64,000 nucleotides of DNA from Oscillospiraceae bacterium (GTDB lineage Bacteria; Bacillota; Clostridia; Oscillospirales; Oscillospiraceae). The notes below the pieces were generated by a model. The model was given only the letters and a program-made list of their open reading frames with translations. It was not told where the DNA came from and ran no database searches. Position 1 is the stretch's first letter; every line of letters starts with the position of its first letter. The position numbers and the translations under genes were made by a program. Location: contig JAFQNL010000019.1 of assembly GCA_017395935.1 (NCBI GenBank), forward strand, positions 62,001-126,000, given 5' to 3'. Below are positions 12,599-60,050 of this stretch, one piece after another.

Positions 12599-12674
<76 letters not shown>

Positions 12675-53483: not shown

Positions 53484-56042
53484 ATGCAGCCTGTTCTGTG
53501 TTGTAAATGTAAAAAGAATGTAGCCGTTATTTTCCTCACCCGGATCGACAACGGAGAGAGCAAGAACGAGGGCTACTGTCTGACCTGTGCCAAGGGCATG
53601 GGTATTAAACCTGTGGACGATCTTCTGTCCAAAATGGGTATTTCTGATGAAGATCTGGAAAGCCTGACCAATGAAATGATGTCCGCTTTCGGCGGTCCCG
53701 AAGCCATGGAAGCTATGATGGGCGGCCAGGAAGAGGGAGATGAGGACGATCAGGAAGATGGCAAGACCGCTACCTTCCCGTTCCTCAATCGCCTGTTCGG
53801 TGCCGGTCAGGGCAATCAGGAGTTCAAGCGGGATAACGAAGCGCCCCGGGGCCATGAGAAGGAAAGACAGTCTCCCGGCAAAGGGGATAAGAACCAGAAG
53901 CGTAAGTATCTGGAAAGCTACTGTATCTCGCTGACCCGTAAAGCCAGGGAGGGCAAGCTGGATGGCGTGATCGGTCGGGAAGAGGAGATTGCCCGCGTCA
54001 TGCAGATCCTTAACCGCCGTCAGAAGAACAATCCCTGCCTGATCGGCGAGCCCGGTGTTGGTAAGACTGCCATTGCTGAAGGCCTTGCCCTGCGCATTGT
54101 ATCCGGTCAGGTACCCTATAAGCTGGTGGATAAGGAAGTCTATCTGCTGGATCTGACTGCTCTGGTGGCTGGCACTCAGTTCCGCGGCCAGTTTGAGAGC
54201 CGTATGAAGGGCCTGATCGAAGAAGTTAAGCGAATCGGGAATATTATCCTTGTCATCGACGAAGTCCATAACATCGTGGGTGCCGGCGATGCCGAAGGTT
54301 CAATGAATGCCGCCAATATCCTTAAGCCTGCCCTCTCCCGAGGTGAGATTCAGGTAATCGGCGCCACTACCTATAATGAATACCGGAAGTACATTGAAAA
54401 GGACGCCGCCCTGGAGCGCCGTTTCCAGCCGGTCAATGTAGCCGAACCCTCGCTGGATGACTCTACTCGGATTTTGGAAGGTATCGCTCATTTCTATGAA
54501 AACTATCATCAGGTAACTATTCCCAAGCCCATTCTGCGTCAGGCAGTTCTTCTGTCTGAGCGCTATATTACCGACCGTTTCCTTCCCGATAAAGCGATCG
54601 ACCTGATTGATGAGGCCTGCTCTGATGTCAACCTCCATGACCAGAATCTGGCCCGTCTGGCTGCTATTAAGAAAGACCGGGCTGATATCGCGAAGGAGCG
54701 GGAGCTCATTCTGGCCAGTCAGCACGAACAGTCCAATGAGCGCTCCTCCAAGCTGAAGGATAACGAGCAGAAGCAGTCTCGCTGCCGTCAGCAGCTCACC
54801 TCCCTGAACAACGAAGGCATGAGTGTTCAGAACAGCACTTACTATAACGGAGACCGGGAGGGCAAGCTTCGTGAGCTGAGCCAGAAGACCGAAGAACTGA
54901 AGAAGCAGCTCCAGGCACTGAAGGAGGAGCGGATGGCCATTCAGAGCGCTCCGGAGGACTCCAAGGCCTATGAGCGTATTGCTCATCTGCGCAGCAAGGA
55001 TCTCCAGCTGGAGAGCGAGGAGAACGCGCTCAAGGCGCTTGGCCGCCCTGCTCTGGGTGTGGAGAATCTGGCCCGGGTTATTGAGCTTTGGACCAATATT
55101 CCTGCCAGCCGAATTCAGGAAGAAGAGTTTGCCCGTCTGAGTCAGCTGGATCAGCGGCTGAAGAAGCATATTATCGGTCAGGATCAAGCAGTGGATGCTG
55201 TGACCCGGGCGATTCGCCGAAATCGAGTGGGCATCTCTCCCAAGCATAAACCTGTCTCCTTCATTTTCGTCGGCTCTACCGGTGTGGGTAAGACGGAGCT
55301 TGTCAAGCAGCTGGCTCAGGATCTCTTTAACAGTCCTGAGTCCCTGATCCGTCTGGATATGTCCGAATTTATGGAGAAGCATGCGGTCTCCCGGATCGTA
55401 GGCTCGCCTCCCGGCTATGTAGGCTATGACGAAGCCGGACAGCTGACGGAGAAGATTCGCCGGAAGCCTTACTCTGTTATCCTTTTTGATGAGATCGAAA
55501 AGGCGCATCCTGATGTGCTGAACATTCTGCTTCAAATCCTGGACGACGGTCAGATTACCGATGCCCACGGACGTAAGGTTAACTTTGAAAACACAGTCAT
55601 CGTTATGACCTCCAATGCTGGCAGCGGCTCCAAGGGAGGCAGTGTCGGCTTTGGCCGCACCTCCGATGAGCTGGATCAGGAGCGGACAATGAAGGCTCTC
55701 CAGTCTTTCCTGCGGCCTGAGTTTATTAACCGCGTGGATGAGATTGTCCACTTTAACCGACTGAGCGAAGAGGACTTCAAGGGTATCACTGGTATTATGC
55801 TTGCTGAACTCAAGCAGTCTATGAATGATAAGGGTATTGAGTTTAACTGGGATGACGAGCTGGTGAATTATCTTACCCATAAGTCCTATTCCACCACCTA
55901 TGGCGCCCGTAACCTCCGTCGGCTGATCCAGAGAGAGCTGGAGGATCTGATTGCCATGCGGCTGATTGAACAATACGATCAGCAGATCAAACGTCTTACC
56001 GCAACCGTCGCTGATGACCAGATCGTGCTTATCAGCGGCTGA
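53484..56042 (+). CDS. ClpE/ClpC-like AAA+ ATPase with N-terminal zinc finger
   Basis: This 852-residue Hsp100 unfoldase begins with a treble-clef-like zinc finger (Cys6/Cys9 and Cys32/Cys35), as in ClpE. An acidic linker (about residues 80-140) takes the place of the Clp N-repeat domain. The first AAA+ module has Walker A GEPGVGKT (188-195), and an extended coiled-coil middle domain spans about residues 395-520. The second module has Walker A GSTGVGKT and MEKHAVSRIVGSPPGYVGYDEAG. A VGFG loop near residue 720 would dock on ClpP. No CtsR box is evident upstream. It precedes RNase Z by 27 bases. Confidence 0.9.
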   Translation: MQPVLCCKCKKNVAVIFLTRIDNGESKNEGYCLTCAKGMGIKPVDDLLSKMGISDEDLESLTNEMMSAFGGPEAMEAMMGGQEEGDEDDQEDGKTATFPFLNRLFGAGQGNQEFKRDNEAPRGHEKERQSPGKGDKNQKRKYLESYCISLTRKAREGKLDGVIGREEEIARVMQILNRRQKNNPCLIGEPGVGKTAIAEGLALRIVSGQVPYKLVDKEVYLLDLTALVAGTQFRGQFESRMKGLIEEVKRIGNIILVIDEVHNIVGAGDAEGSMNAANILKPALSRGEIQVIGATTYNEYRKYIEKDAALERRFQPVNVAEPSLDDSTRILEGIAHFYENYHQVTIPKPILRQAVLLSERYITDRFLPDKAIDLIDEACSDVNLHDQNLARLAAIKKDRADIAKERELILASQHEQSNERSSKLKDNEQKQSRCRQQLTSLNNEGMSVQNSTYYNGDREGKLRELSQKTEELKKQLQALKEERMAIQSAPEDSKAYERIAHLRSKDLQLESEENALKALGRPALGVENLARVIELWTNIPASRIQEEEFARLSQLDQRLKKHIIGQDQAVDAVTRAIRRNRVGISPKHKPVSFIFVGSTGVGKTELVKQLAQDLFNSPESLIRLDMSEFMEKHAVSRIVGSPPGYVGYDEAGQLTEKIRRKPYSVILFDEIEKAHPDVLNILLQILDDGQITDAHGRKVNFENTVIVMTSNAGSGSKGGSVGFGRTSDELDQERTMKALQSFLRPEFINRVDEIVHFNRLSEEDFKGITGIMLAELKQSMNDKGIEFNWDDELVNYLTHKSYSTTYGARNLRRLIQRELEDLIAMRLIEQYDQQIKRLTATVADDQIVLISG

Positions 56043-56069: not shown

Positions 56070-56969
56070 ATGCTGGACGTCTGCCTGCTTGGCACCGGAG
56101 GTACAATGCCTCTGCCCGGCCGCTGGCTCACCTCATTGGTGCTGCGCTGCAATGGTCGGAGCCTGCTTATTGACTCCGGCGAGGGAACTCAGATTGCTGC
56201 CCGGGAAGCCGGATGCTCATTTAAAAATCTGGATACTATCTGCATTACCCATCTTCATGCTGACCACACCGCCGGCCTCCCCGGTCTGCTGCTCACTATG
56301 GGCAACATGGACCGAACCGAGCCGGTAACTTTGGTGGGTCCACGGGGGACGAAAAGGCTGCTGGAAGCCGTTAAAGTGTTGGCTCCTGAGCTGCCCTTCC
56401 CGGTGTGGGCCATGGAGATTGACGAGGACAACTGCCAGACAATCTCTCTTGGAGACTGGGAGATTGCGCCTTTCCCGGTGAATCATACGGTGCCCTGCTT
56501 TGGTTATCTGGTCACTGTGCCCAGAAAGGGCAAGTTCGACCCGAGCAAGGCCATTGAAGCCGGTATTCCCCGTCCTCTCTGGAAGCGGCTGCAGAATGGC
56601 GAGTCGGTAGACGACTATACCCCTGACATGGTTATGGGGCCGCCCAGAACCGGTATAAAGCTGGTCTACTGCACTGATACCCGTCCGGCGAGACCGCTGT
56701 ATAAGGCCTGTGACGGGGTGGATCTGCTGATTTGTGAAGGCATGTACGGTGAGCCGGATAAGCTGGCAAAGGCCAAAGAGACCTGTCATATGACCTTCCA
56801 GGAAGCGGCGAAAACCGCGCTTCGGGGCGGTGCAAAGGAGCTTTGGCTGACCCACTTTAGTCCGTCTCTCAACCATCCTGAAGATTATCTGGATCAGGTA
56901 CAAGCTATTTTCCCGAATACATCTCTTGGATCTGCCGGCCAATGGCATTCGCTTACATTTACAGAATGA
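56070..56969 (+). CDS. rnz: Ribonuclease Z
   Basis: This 299-residue metallo-beta-lactamase-fold enzyme trims the 3' end of tRNA precursors. The metal-binding motif is CITHLHADHTAGLPGLL near residue 60, further ligands lie in VNHTVPCFGY and YCTDTRP, and the final His is in LWLTHFSPSLNHPEDY near residue 265. FLGTGG-like LGTGGTMPLPGRWLTS opens the protein. The flexible arm (exosite) lies around residues 155-190. It probably shares a transcript with the ClpE-like gene. Confidence 0.94.
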   Translation: MLDVCLLGTGGTMPLPGRWLTSLVLRCNGRSLLIDSGEGTQIAAREAGCSFKNLDTICITHLHADHTAGLPGLLLTMGNMDRTEPVTLVGPRGTKRLLEAVKVLAPELPFPVWAMEIDEDNCQTISLGDWEIAPFPVNHTVPCFGYLVTVPRKGKFDPSKAIEAGIPRPLWKRLQNGESVDDYTPDMVMGPPRTGIKLVYCTDTRPARPLYKACDGVDLLICEGMYGEPDKLAKAKETCHMTFQEAAKTALRGGAKELWLTHFSPSLNHPEDYLDQVQAIFPNTSLGSAGQWHSLTFTE

Positions 56970-58203: not shown

Positions 58204-58598
58204 AATAACTCTCCTTCGTTGACGATGAATATTCGGTCGGGAAGGGAAGACCCGACCACTCGTATGGCACTATTCTACCATATCCTGTGCCAAATGGAAT
58301 AACGAAGTGTAAATTTTTTCTGATTTGTATAGCACTGTCCCGCGGAAGCAGGTCATTGCAGATCAGCACTTTCGCAGCTAGCGCCTCTTCTTAAAGCGAT
58401 CCCTGCACCAGCTTGATCTTGGCACACTGCGCACTAGAAACGATGGAGTAACGTGTTATTCTGACTGCAGATTCGGCTCTTTCCAATGCGGTTGTGTAAT
58501 TGATTTTTAGAATGTTGAGTTTTTCTGGCGATGAAGGGGAGCAGGCAGCAACGGATATGCGATACGACTCTTCAAATGATCCATTGAGCAGCAACGTA
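58204..58598 (-). other. Intergenic region between the flavin reductase gene and the retron
   Basis: Apart from the retron terminator at its edge and an unresolved promoter for the flavin reductase, I see no supported gene here. A minus-strand frame of up to 90 codons (to 58391) starts inside the reverse transcriptase gene without a ribosome-binding site and runs through the terminator, so it is not called. Confidence 0.4.
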
Positions 58599-58636
58599 AA
58601 ATCCCACCCGTGGTACGTGTACCGCAGGTGGGATTT
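58599..58636 (-). terminator. Terminator of the retron
   Basis: On the minus strand AAATCCCACC pairs with GGTGGGATTT, with further pairing GCGGTAC/GTACCACG inside, and the stem is followed by TTACG. It begins three bases after the reverse transcriptase stop, so no downstream effector shares the transcript. Confidence 0.85.
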
Positions 58637-58638
58637 CA

Positions 58639-59553
58639 TTATTCTGCTGACTGTTGAAGCCATCTTCTGGCTTCCAGCATATCCCGATCATTAGGAGAAA
58701 GCTGAAGCACATAGTTGATCTTACCCAGCAACTGCATTCGGTAAGTTGCTTCCGAAACCTCCAGGCCGATTTTTGTAAGGTGACTTTGGACACCAAATTT
58801 TTTGCAGTAGTACAATTGCTGTTGAAGCTTGCGGCGGTAATCTGCGGGGATACTCAGTCGTTCATTGACCACGATGCCGGTGACGCTCTGCTGCTGACCG
58901 GGGCGCTGGATTCTTGTCTTTTGCTCATTCAACAGGAATCCCATTTTCTTTAATTCCAATCTGACAAATCGGATCACTTCTGCCGGATCAAAACTACCGG
59001 AAAGAGTCATGTCATCACTGTACCGGGTATAGGCGATCCCCTGATCACGGCACCACTGGCCAACGCGTTCATCAAACTCATACAGAATAATATTGGTGAT
59101 GGCCGGCGAACTCGGTGCACCCTGAGGCAGAGCGTCTTTGTGGTAGCAGAGCATTGTCAGAAGAATTCGCAGAGATTCTGCGTAGATTTCTTCCGGGAAT
59201 ACCTTGTCCTTTACAGTGGAGTAGCGTATGCTGTCAAAGAATCGGAAAATGTCCAGCTTCAGTACCAGCTGTTTGCCTACATGATGCTTGGCGTTTTGAA
59301 GGGTGGAGCTGCCATACCGATATGCCATGGCATATCGTGACACAGGCATGGAGATTAGAAGCACCTCCACGATACGTCTCTGGATGGACTTCAGAGCCTC
59401 ATCCGGAACAGACAGGGTTCGAAAGCCACCGCTTTTCTTGGGAAGTGTTGCTTTATGGTAATGCTTGTTGATATGGTTGCTGACGGCATAGAGTGTTTTG
59501 GAACTGATGCCGAGGTCTTGTTCAAGGGAGGAAAGCTCCCTGTATACGATCAT
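58639..59553 (-). CDS. Retron reverse transcriptase
   Basis: This 304-residue protein is a complete retron-type reverse transcriptase. Motifs in order are FRTLSVPDEALKSIQRR (RT1), the retron-specific NAKHH (87-91), KLDIFRFFDSI (motif A, first Asp101), LPQGAPSSP (142-150), the polymerase box YSDD (178-181) and the retron thumb motif VTG (224-226). It would copy part of its own non-coding RNA into multicopy single-stranded DNA. There is no fused domain. The start at 59553 follows GGGAGG; a longer frame to 59658 runs back into the ncRNA and lacks support. No effector gene is adjacent. Confidence 0.95.
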   Translation of the reverse strand: MIVYRELSSLEQDLGISSKTLYAVSNHINKHYHKATLPKKSGGFRTLSVPDEALKSIQRRIVEVLLISMPVSRYAMAYRYGSSTLQNAKHHVGKQLVLKLDIFRFFDSIRYSTVKDKVFPEEIYAESLRILLTMLCYHKDALPQGAPSSPAITNIILYEFDERVGQWCRDQGIAYTRYSDDMTLSGSFDPAEVIRFVRLELKKMGFLLNEQKTRIQRPGQQQSVTGIVVNERLSIPADYRRKLQQQLYYCKKFGVQSHLTKIGLEVSEATYRMQLLGKINYVLQLSPNDRDMLEARRWLQQSAE

Positions 59554-59577
59554 GAAACTTTCCTCCCTTTTACAGTC

Positions 59578-59773
59578 TGGAACAATACAATGATGTATGG
59601 CGAAGTGCGCAGCAGTATCCGGGGTGCGGGCACATGAAATGTGCCGCGGTGGGCACACAGCGTGTGCAGGAATACTGCAAGCAGTTCGGCTGAGCGAAGC
59701 GAATACGTTGAATTTGCGCTATCCGACAGCGACTCGCTGCCGGTGCCAGTGATCTGACAAAAGCTATTGTTCC
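59578..59773 (-). ncRNA. Retron msr-msd non-coding RNA (candidate)
   Basis: The RNA would begin near 59773 with GGAACAATA and end in TATTGTTCCA at 59587-59578, giving 9-10 bp of a1/a2 pairing (59765-59774 with 59578-59587). Straight after a1 comes TAGC, the context of the priming guanosine (about 59764). The msr part has the hairpin CCGGCAGC-GAGTC-GCTGTCGG (59743-59723). The msd part has an outer stem GCAGTATTCC/GGATACTGC (59678-59669 with 59620-59612). It encloses GCACAC-GCT-GTGTGC (59667-59653) and GGCACAT-TTC-ATGTGCC (59645-59629). The reverse transcriptase follows 24 bases later. Confidence 0.8.
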
Positions 59774-59779
59774 ACAGCA

Positions 59780-59808
59780 ATTATAACTAAGGCTGCCTCC
59801 GTATGCAA
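59780..59808 (-). promoter_or_regulatory. Retron promoter
   Basis: On the minus strand TTGCAT (59808-59803) and TATAAT (59785-59780) are 17 bases apart, which places the first base of the transcript at or next to the a1 repeat. A second TATAAT at 59851-59846 has a poorer -35. The 135 bases between this promoter and the tRNA terminator hold nothing else I can support. Confidence 0.7.
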
Positions 59809-59935: not shown

Positions 59936-59970
59936 AAAGAAAGAGACCTGAAATCTTACGATTTCAGGTC
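59936..59970 (-). terminator. Terminator of tRNA-Ala copy 2
   Basis: On the minus strand GACCTGAAATC pairs with GATTTCAGGTC (4-base loop), followed by TCTTTCTTTC. It separates the tRNA from the retron. Confidence 0.85.
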
Positions 59971-59974
59971 TTTT

Positions 59975-60050
<76 letters not shown>

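What the first reader, a model, noticed from the sequence alone, without database searches (positions are those of the whole stretch)
58599..59808. Compact retron with no evident effector, beside a tRNA-Ala gene
A reverse transcriptase with all retron hallmarks (NAKHH, YSDD, VTG) is preceded by a 196-base non-coding stretch with the full retron ncRNA logic. That logic is a 17-spacer promoter placing the start at the a1 repeat, a 10-bp a1/a2 pair, TAGC after a1, an msr hairpin and a branched msd stem. The transcript ends in a strong terminator three bases after the gene, and the tRNA upstream has its own terminator. No toxin, ATPase, nuclease or membrane effector is linked, so the partner is missing, encoded in trans, or the unit does something other than known retron defence.
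Basis: partly seen in the sequence, partly recalled or inferred. Interest (0 to 1): 0.85.

Follow-up and report, generated by a model that had tools for sequence, protein, structure and literature searches.

The report
Ec107-like retron without linked effector
This is a small bacterial DNA-making element (a retron) of the Ec107 kind, first found in E. coli, which carries only its RNA template and its reverse transcriptase; the sequence is real and conserved, but the kind is known and what it does for the cell is still an open question.

Summary
On the minus strand at 58597-59808 lies a retron: a -10 box, a 195-nt msr-msd RNA (a1/a2 59765-59774 with 59578-59587), a 304-aa reverse transcriptase (58639-59553) and a terminator starting right after the stop codon. 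A covariance model trained without E. coli finds the RNA of the E. coli slmA-pyrE retron (E 4.5e-7 and 1.9e-8), and PADLOC's RT_Ec107-like model is the best match (426 bits; next, type III-A, 336). So this is an Ec107-like retron, a known kind. The absence of a linked effector is shared by its relatives. Apart from the RT, no gene family is found in more than 5 of 32 loci. None of 98 neighbouring ORFs at 18 close loci matches a known retron effector; the same scan found the PRTase of a type III-A locus. RT (dN/dS 0.07-0.14) and RNA (15 of 33 pairs with compensatory change) are under selection, so the element very likely works. In E. coli, 373 of 5426 genomes carry one copy each, on the chromosome. 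What the RT and its predicted DNA do, alone or with a distant partner, is unknown. New member of a known kind.

The parts
59780..59785 (-). -10 box TATAAT, 6 nt before the a1 repeat GGAACAATA
   Evidence: sequence; TATAAT or a one-base variant in 13 of 17 close loci. Its -35 TTGCAT (59803-59808) is weak, 3 of 6.
59579..59773 (-). retron ncRNA (msr-msd), 195 nt
   Evidence: coordinates; covariance model R1, 182.1 bits at 59570-59775 (a training member); fold z -2.58; 15 of 33 pairs compensatory over 15 sequences
59765..59774 (-). a1 repeat TGGAACAATA; following G at 59764 (TAGC) is the presumed 2'-5' branch residue
   Evidence: branch role is by analogy with characterised retrons (recalled)
59744..59759 (-). 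msr hairpin 1
   Evidence: helix 2, 4 of 6 pairs with changes on both sides
59723..59743 (-). msr hairpin 2, core GCGAGTCGC, kept in E. coli
   Evidence: helix 3, 2 of 8 pairs with changes on both sides
59588..59722 (-). msd template region with main stem 59670-59677 / 59613-59620
   Evidence: helix 5, 4 of 8 pairs with changes on both sides; exact cDNA ends not determined
59578..59587 (-). a2 repeat, complement of a1
58639..59553 (-). retron reverse transcriptase, 304 aa, NAKHH / YSDD / VTG
   Evidence: PADLOC RT_Ec107-like E 2.3e-128; RVT_1 E 3e-21; dN/dS 0.07-0.13 against six relatives
58597..58638 (-). terminator directly after the RT stop codon
   Evidence: -27.1 kcal/mol, z -6.45; a similar hairpin in L003
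59975..60050 (-). tRNA-Ala (GGC) upstream, own terminator stem 59944-59971; neighbour, not part of the retron

Best explanation
A working, solitary retron of the Ec107 (Eco5) kind. Transcription starts at or near a1; the RNA folds with a1/a2 paired; the RT binds the msr, is primed by the G in TAGC, and copies the msd from next to a2 into a multicopy single-stranded DNA that stays with RNA and RT. One short transcript ending just after the RT gene carries everything. No effector is co-transcribed or linked, so the RT-DNA particle acts either on its own (for example as a decoy or sink for a DNA-binding protein of host or phage) or with a partner encoded elsewhere. Shown here: anatomy, family membership, selection on RT and RNA, no known effector linked. 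Inferred from known retrons: priming, msDNA synthesis. Not shown: function.
For: RT best match RT_Ec107-like, 425.9 bits against 335.7 for the next model; all 20 aligned RTs match that model (which ranks models for the window row only). RNA model built without E. coli finds the E. coli slmA-pyrE retron RNA, E 4.5e-7 and 1.9e-8. 15 of 33 pairs compensatory, slid controls 2-7. dN/dS 0.07-0.09 between window and five close relatives, 0.13 to a sixth. No family besides the RT in more than 5 of 32 loci; 98 neighbour ORFs of 18 close loci match no retron effector in PADLOC, while the same scan of 49 ORFs at ten more distant loci finds a PRTase_III-A. E. coli: 373 of 5426 genomes, one copy each, all on chromosomes.
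Against: No msDNA has been measured in this host. The RT active site is YSDD where the other 19 aligned RTs have YCDD. The -35 box is weak. The RT tree does not settle how E. coli Ec107-type RTs and type III-A RTs branch. dS is above 1 in the window pairs, so the ratios are rough. ORFs under 70 aa were not examined as neighbours.
Confidence: 0.88

Rival explanations
1. Defence retron with the effector in trans: the RT-DNA particle holds or arms a toxin encoded elsewhere in the chromosome.
For: Retrons typically pair the RT-DNA with a toxic effector (PMC12548924, start of abstract and passages; PMC8989520, passages). The RT is nearest to type III-A models after Ec107-like.
Against: The type III-A PRTase was not found in 11 of 11 genomes with this kind of RT (one of them, G152, is 75% complete). 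No fixed neighbour in 32 loci. Other effector families were not sought genome-wide.
Confidence: 0.3
2. Effector-free function: the msDNA itself, or the RT-msDNA particle, is the active product, for instance a decoy that binds single-stranded-DNA or repair proteins under stress or infection.
For: Selection on RT and RNA without a partner gene. Expression of E. coli Eco5 is strongly enhanced in phosphate starvation and on entry into stationary phase (PMC6868368 passage).
Against: No phenotype of an Ec107-like retron appeared in the paper passages that I read.
Confidence: 0.35
3. Selfish element that spreads into gene ends and terminators and does nothing for the host.
For: Many different neighbours in the order; in E. 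coli a palindrome between slmA and pyrE was replaced (PMC6868368 passage; sequences); 3 of the 18 close loci lie behind a tRNA gene.
Against: One copy per genome in 373 of 373 E. coli carriers, no orphan RNA copies in 59 genomes, searched with strict filters, no close relative in the plasmid, phage and viral-contig collections: little sign of active spread. The unit encodes no mobility function.
Confidence: 0.2
4. Decaying remnant of a type III-A retron that lost its PRTase.
For: Type III-A is the next best RT model.
Against: Purifying selection on the RT and covariation in the RNA over many lineages.
Confidence: 0.05
5. Not a retron but a group II intron or DGR reverse transcriptase.
For: The group II model TIGR04416 matches weakly, 62.8 bits against a cut-off of 300.
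Against: NAxxH and VTG motifs, retron RNA with covariation, Ec107-like match.
Confidence: 0.01

Closest known systems
Retron-Eco5 (Ec107), E. coli, between slmA (ttk) and pyrE
   Same: RT and msr-msd only, no other gene between slmA and pyrE in four fetched records; a1/TAGC/two msr hairpins with GCGAGTCGC core; RNA model match E 4.5e-7 and 1.9e-8; RT 42% identical; hairpin of its own after the RT
   Different: Host phylum; msd differs in length and sequence; YSDD instead of YCDD; insertion site. That L070/L071 are Ec107 itself rests on my recall of the slmA-pyrE site, on the RT annotated there and on the fit to the PADLOC model.
PADLOC RT_Ec107-like (PDLC03739)
   Same: Best model for the window RT, full length, 425.9 bits
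   Different: None seen; 24 of 394 genomes of the order match at E <= 1e-40
Type III-A retrons (RT + PRTase + winged-helix protein)
   Same: Next best RT models, 335.7 bits
   Different: No PRTase linked or found anywhere in 11 genomes
Retron-Sda1, Retron-Bth1 (PMC12548924, passages read)
   Same: Retrons without the effector usual for their kind
   Different: Sda1 has HipA/DUF3037 genes instead, Bth1 is interrupted by a group II intron; the passages do not describe this family

Membership tests
Retron | RT with NAxxH in region X and VTG | tested here: met
   NAKHH and VTG in the window RT; N, A, H and T, G invariant in 20 rows
Retron | msr-msd RNA with inverted repeats a1/a2 and a G after a1 | tested here: met
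   10-bp a1/a2, TAGC; helix 1 paired in 94.8% of cells with 4 of 9 pairs changed on both sides
Retron | production of branched msDNA / RT-DNA | not testable with these tools
   needs nucleic acid from cells
Ec107-like retron | RT fits the Ec107-like model ahead of all other retron RT models | tested here: met
   425.9 against 335.7 bits. All 20 aligned RTs match the model, but they match other retron RT models too and the ranking is shown for the window only
Ec107-like retron | RNA homologous to that of the E. coli retron at slmA-pyrE | tested here: met
   model R1, no E. coli row in training, E 4.5e-7 (L070) and 1.9e-8 (L071); empty K-12 site L069 gives none
Ec107-like retron | RT grouped with E. 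coli Ec107 in a tree | tested here: inconclusive
   backbone unsupported (45/32), long branches meet
Ec107-like retron | no linked effector gene (recalled for Ec107; seen in four E. coli records) | tested here: met
   with the positive control
Ec107-like retron | YCDD active site (reported for Eco5) | tested here: not met
   window has YSDD, the other 19 of 20 rows YCDD; I take this as a variant residue, not as a defining feature
Type III-A retron | PRTase effector | tested here: not met
   none nearby or in the genome at E <= 1e-5

The most novel reading that the evidence does not exclude
Ec107-like retrons are a long-lived lineage of truly effector-free retrons, shared by Clostridia and E. 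coli, in which the RT-DNA particle itself is the functional product (a decoy or sensor acting on a core host or phage DNA-binding protein), so that the effector-based defence model does not cover all retrons.
Probability: 0.33. Interest if true: 0.72.

Novelty: new member of a known kind. Interest (0 to 1): 0.4.

Why it matters
Present models treat retrons as three-part defence systems with a toxic effector. This family has kept RT and RNA under selection in distant bacteria without a linked partner. The comparative set gathered here (18 close loci, an RNA covariance model that reaches E. coli, and carrier and non-carrier E. coli genomes with an exact empty site) makes the question of what an effector-free retron does directly testable in laboratory E. 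coli.

Tried and rejected
Orphan RNA copies in trans: model R1 over 59 genomes gave 4 matches, all in genomes and at places where an RT lies (strict filters, weak matches may be lost). A type III-A PRTase elsewhere in the genome: none in 11 genomes, found only in G192, the control with a PRTase beside its RT. Rfam families at the RNA: none up to E 1. Mobile context: best plasmid row 38.9% identical, best phage-collection row 42.9% on a 4.7-kb unverified fecal scaffold, viral contigs 34% or less (two peptide patterns only). Empty sites in relatives: a downstream-gene protein over 89 genomes gave nothing at E <= 1e-60, with no positive control; a genus of one genome and non-syntenic flanks gave nothing usable; so the replaced-palindrome comparison rests on E. 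coli alone. The window's own site could not be matched either: flank searches in 32 genomes of the genus found the genes, but no tRNA in the fetched flanks of six of these places (L032, L093-L097). A tatD remnant behind the window RT: a 34-base resemblance to the tatD-side flank of L003, score 33 against a maximum of 30 in 300 mononucleotide shuffles, too weak to claim; an intact tatD lies elsewhere. RT frame extended upstream (GTG at 59658): open in some relatives only, so ATG 59553 is kept. Structure prediction was not obtained: four requests, machine busy each time.

Full report
WHAT IS THERE. On the minus strand of the window, 58597-59808, lies a compact unit: a perfect -10 box (59780-59785), a1 (59765-59774), the TAGC sequence, two msr hairpins, an msd region, a2 (59578-59587), a GGGAGG ribosome site, a 304-aa reverse transcriptase (59553-58639) and a hairpin terminator that starts right after the stop codon (-27.1 kcal/mol, z -6.45). 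The RNA folds better than its shuffles (z -2.58, 1 of 200 at least as good). The -35 box is weak (3 of 6), and the promoter scan, at chance level in this region, did not list it. In 13 of 17 close loci a hexamer with at most one mismatch to TATAAT lies 13-19 nt before the TAG; L072, L075, L077 and L079 lack one (best of 17 positions tried in each locus).

WHICH KIND. Pfam gives only RVT_1. Of PADLOC's models the best is RT_Ec107-like (425.9 bits, E 2.3e-128), then RT_III-A (335.7 bits). NCBIfam's nearest, retron_St85_RT, stays below its cut-off (218.7 of 235). Among solved structures the best matches by sequence are retron RTs such as Ec86 and Ec67, with group II and DRT2 enzymes far lower. 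The window genome holds one copy. Relatives come from gut Oscillospiraceae and other families of the order: 10 loci in genome contigs, and 24 of 394 genomes of the order at E <= 1e-40 for the Ec107-like model.

THE RNA. The upstream region is conserved together with the RT. In an alignment of 15 RNAs (A1) RNAalifold predicts 33 pairs; 15 have a change on both sides that keeps the pair, 94.5% of cells pair, and structures slid by 1-3 columns give 2-7 such pairs and 35-49%. The structure was derived from these sequences, which favours it on cells paired; the compensatory counts are the better guide. A covariance model from A1 (R1) was run on 22 sources. Of 18 that were not in the training set, 13 gave a match at E <= 1 upstream of the RT, from E 5.6e-48 to 0.0089, including the E. 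coli retrons L070 (E 4.5e-7) and L071 (E 1.9e-8); two of the 13 (L005, L010) are near copies of training rows, and L003 is cut by the contig end. The five without a match are L083, L084, L087 (truncated RT), L091 (the type III-A locus) and L069, the empty K-12 site, which served as a negative control. Three further short matches (E 0.08-0.99) are the antisense of the palindromic hairpin 2. Rfam has no match to this RNA up to E 1.

E. COLI. I recalled that Ec107 sits between pyrE and ttk (slmA). A K-12 query over that site matched 5374 of 5426 genomes; 5 of 60 rows listed at even steps carry an RT gene there. The element itself is in 373 of 5426 genomes, once each, always on the chromosome. The four carriers whose annotation I fetched (L070, L071, L139, L140) hold it between slmA and pyrE with no other gene. 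K-12 has 36 bases between the two stop codons, a palindrome followed by T; in L070 that stretch is gone and the retron, with a hairpin of its own, takes its place, as the literature says (34 bp, palindromic; PMC6868368 passages).

NO EFFECTOR. I took 32 contexts (window, nine loci, twenty, two E. coli), called ORFs of at least 70 aa by a greedy longest-ORF rule, and clustered them. The RT is in 31 of 32 lists (in L011 it was not kept). The next most widespread family is in 5 loci at distances from -6 to +10 kb. Neighbours next to the RT are shared mostly by loci at what looks like the same chromosomal site (L009/L010/L011, L004/L005/L006, L082/L090); a few other pairs share a gene at differing distance or side (L072/L087, L075/L079, L083/L084), none more widely. 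Of up to six neighbours at each of 18 close loci, 98 of 100 ORFs were scanned (two ORFs of L072 were left out). PADLOC shows no retron effector; it does show 20 other models, each in one member save mad8 in two: PDC-M37B, DolB, PDC-M30B, mad1, mad2, mad3, PDC-M41B, Csa3, QatD, TRIP13, pVip, CARF3, AriA, HEC-02A, IetA. Such models also match ordinary relatives (the ClpC-like, TatD-like and radical-SAM genes here), so I read them as scattered, but which locus bears the mad models was not traced. Thirty near neighbours scanned one by one gave no match in 29 and a weak pVip match (34 bits) in one, at L073. Pfam shows mainly ordinary metabolic genes (first 25 of 125 families shown). The same PADLOC scan of 49 of 59 ORFs at ten more distant loci found a PRTase_III-A, so the method can see an effector. 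That PRTase was not found in 11 of 11 genomes with an Ec107-like RT and is present in G192. The greedy rule can choose the wrong strand: in the window it chose an ORF antisense to the flavin reductase gene, which was scanned on its own. ORFs under 70 aa were not looked at.

SELECTION. Window RT against five close relatives: dN/dS 0.07-0.09; against L009 0.13; four other pairs 0.07-0.14. For three window pairs (L006, L072, L077) dS was saturated and no ratio is given; in the others dS is above 1, so the ratios are rough; the four other pairs have dS 0.16-0.68. All 20 aligned RTs match the Ec107-like model, and other retron RT models less well at best. The active site is YSDD in the window and YCDD in the other 19 rows; YCDD is reported for Eco5.

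SITE. The retron lies 200 bp behind a tRNA-Ala. L079 also lies behind a tRNA-Ala (GGC) and L007 behind a tRNA-Leu, so 3 of 18 close loci. Assuming that some 2.5% of genes are tRNA genes (recalled), chance would give about 0.45, with roughly 1% for three or more; the pattern was noticed after the fact and the loci are not all independent. Together with the E. coli case it suggests a preference for gene ends. Attempts at an empty site in the bacterial order failed. Window and L003 share the terminator behind the RT with paired changes, so it may travel with the element, or the two sites may be of common origin.

TREE. A maximum-likelihood tree of 33 RTs places the window with seven close relatives (99/99) but leaves the E. 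coli RTs and the type III-A RT unresolved, with long branches meeting. Membership therefore rests on the RT model and the RNA, not on the tree.

HOW IT PROBABLY WORKS. From the anatomy and from known retrons (recalled), the transcript folds, the RT primes on the G of TAGC (59764) and copies the msd from next to a2. The output is an RT-msDNA particle. Without a linked effector I hold action by the particle itself (0.35) and an effector in trans (0.30) about equally likely, a selfish element at 0.2. Eco5 expression is enhanced in phosphate starvation and on entry into stationary phase (PMC6868368 passage), which fits any of these.

NOVELTY. Papers: PMC6868368 was read in passages and one section, PMC8989520, PMC8565338 and PMC12548924 in passages; the classification paper and the 1996 Ec107 paper are not held. 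The 2019 review gives RNA plus RT alone as a standard cassette; that Ec107 has no accessory gene is my recall, borne out by the four E. coli records. The listings of searches showed no paper on the function of Ec107-like retrons; they cover open-licence papers only. As far as these searches go, the extent of the family in this order and the shared RNA model are additions.

Noticed in passing
12599-12674 and 59975-60050: Two nearly identical tRNA-Ala (GGC) genes in one window: an 84-base stretch is 97.6% identical; the sequences behind the genes differ.
   Followed up: partly
window 53484-56042; L009 3403-5712: A ClpC-like ATPase gene lies about 2.5 kb from the window retron and directly before the retron in L009 and L011 (its end also in L010), and a CbiQ-type transport gene is near in window and L009; shared neighbourhood, different insertion point and orientation.
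   Followed up: partly
L081 (G230): Two Ec107-like RT copies about 4.6 kb apart; one is broken (1 TGA, 2 TAG), and a second RNA match lies near it (E 8.3e-4).
   Followed up: no
L063/L068 (G447); L087 (G062): Broken or truncated Ec107-like RTs: one interrupted by a TGA, one with only the last 120 residues or so.
   Followed up: no
L007 5753-5984: The msd carries a longer and different distal hairpin (221-nt RNA against about 195), while L009-L011 lack that hairpin (about 170 nt): the msd tip is free to vary.
   Followed up: no
58250-58600: Intergenic stretch behind the retron with a 34-base resemblance to the tatD-side flank of L003; too weak to call a gene remnant.
   Followed up: partly
56070-56969: Metallo-beta-lactamase-fold protein with a weak, below cut-off match to anti-Pycsar Apyc1 (31.2 of 50 bits).
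   Followed up: no
neighbours in A3 (18 close loci): PADLOC matches to mad1, mad2, mad3 and mad8 models among neighbour ORFs; the loci that bear them were not identified.
   Followed up: partly
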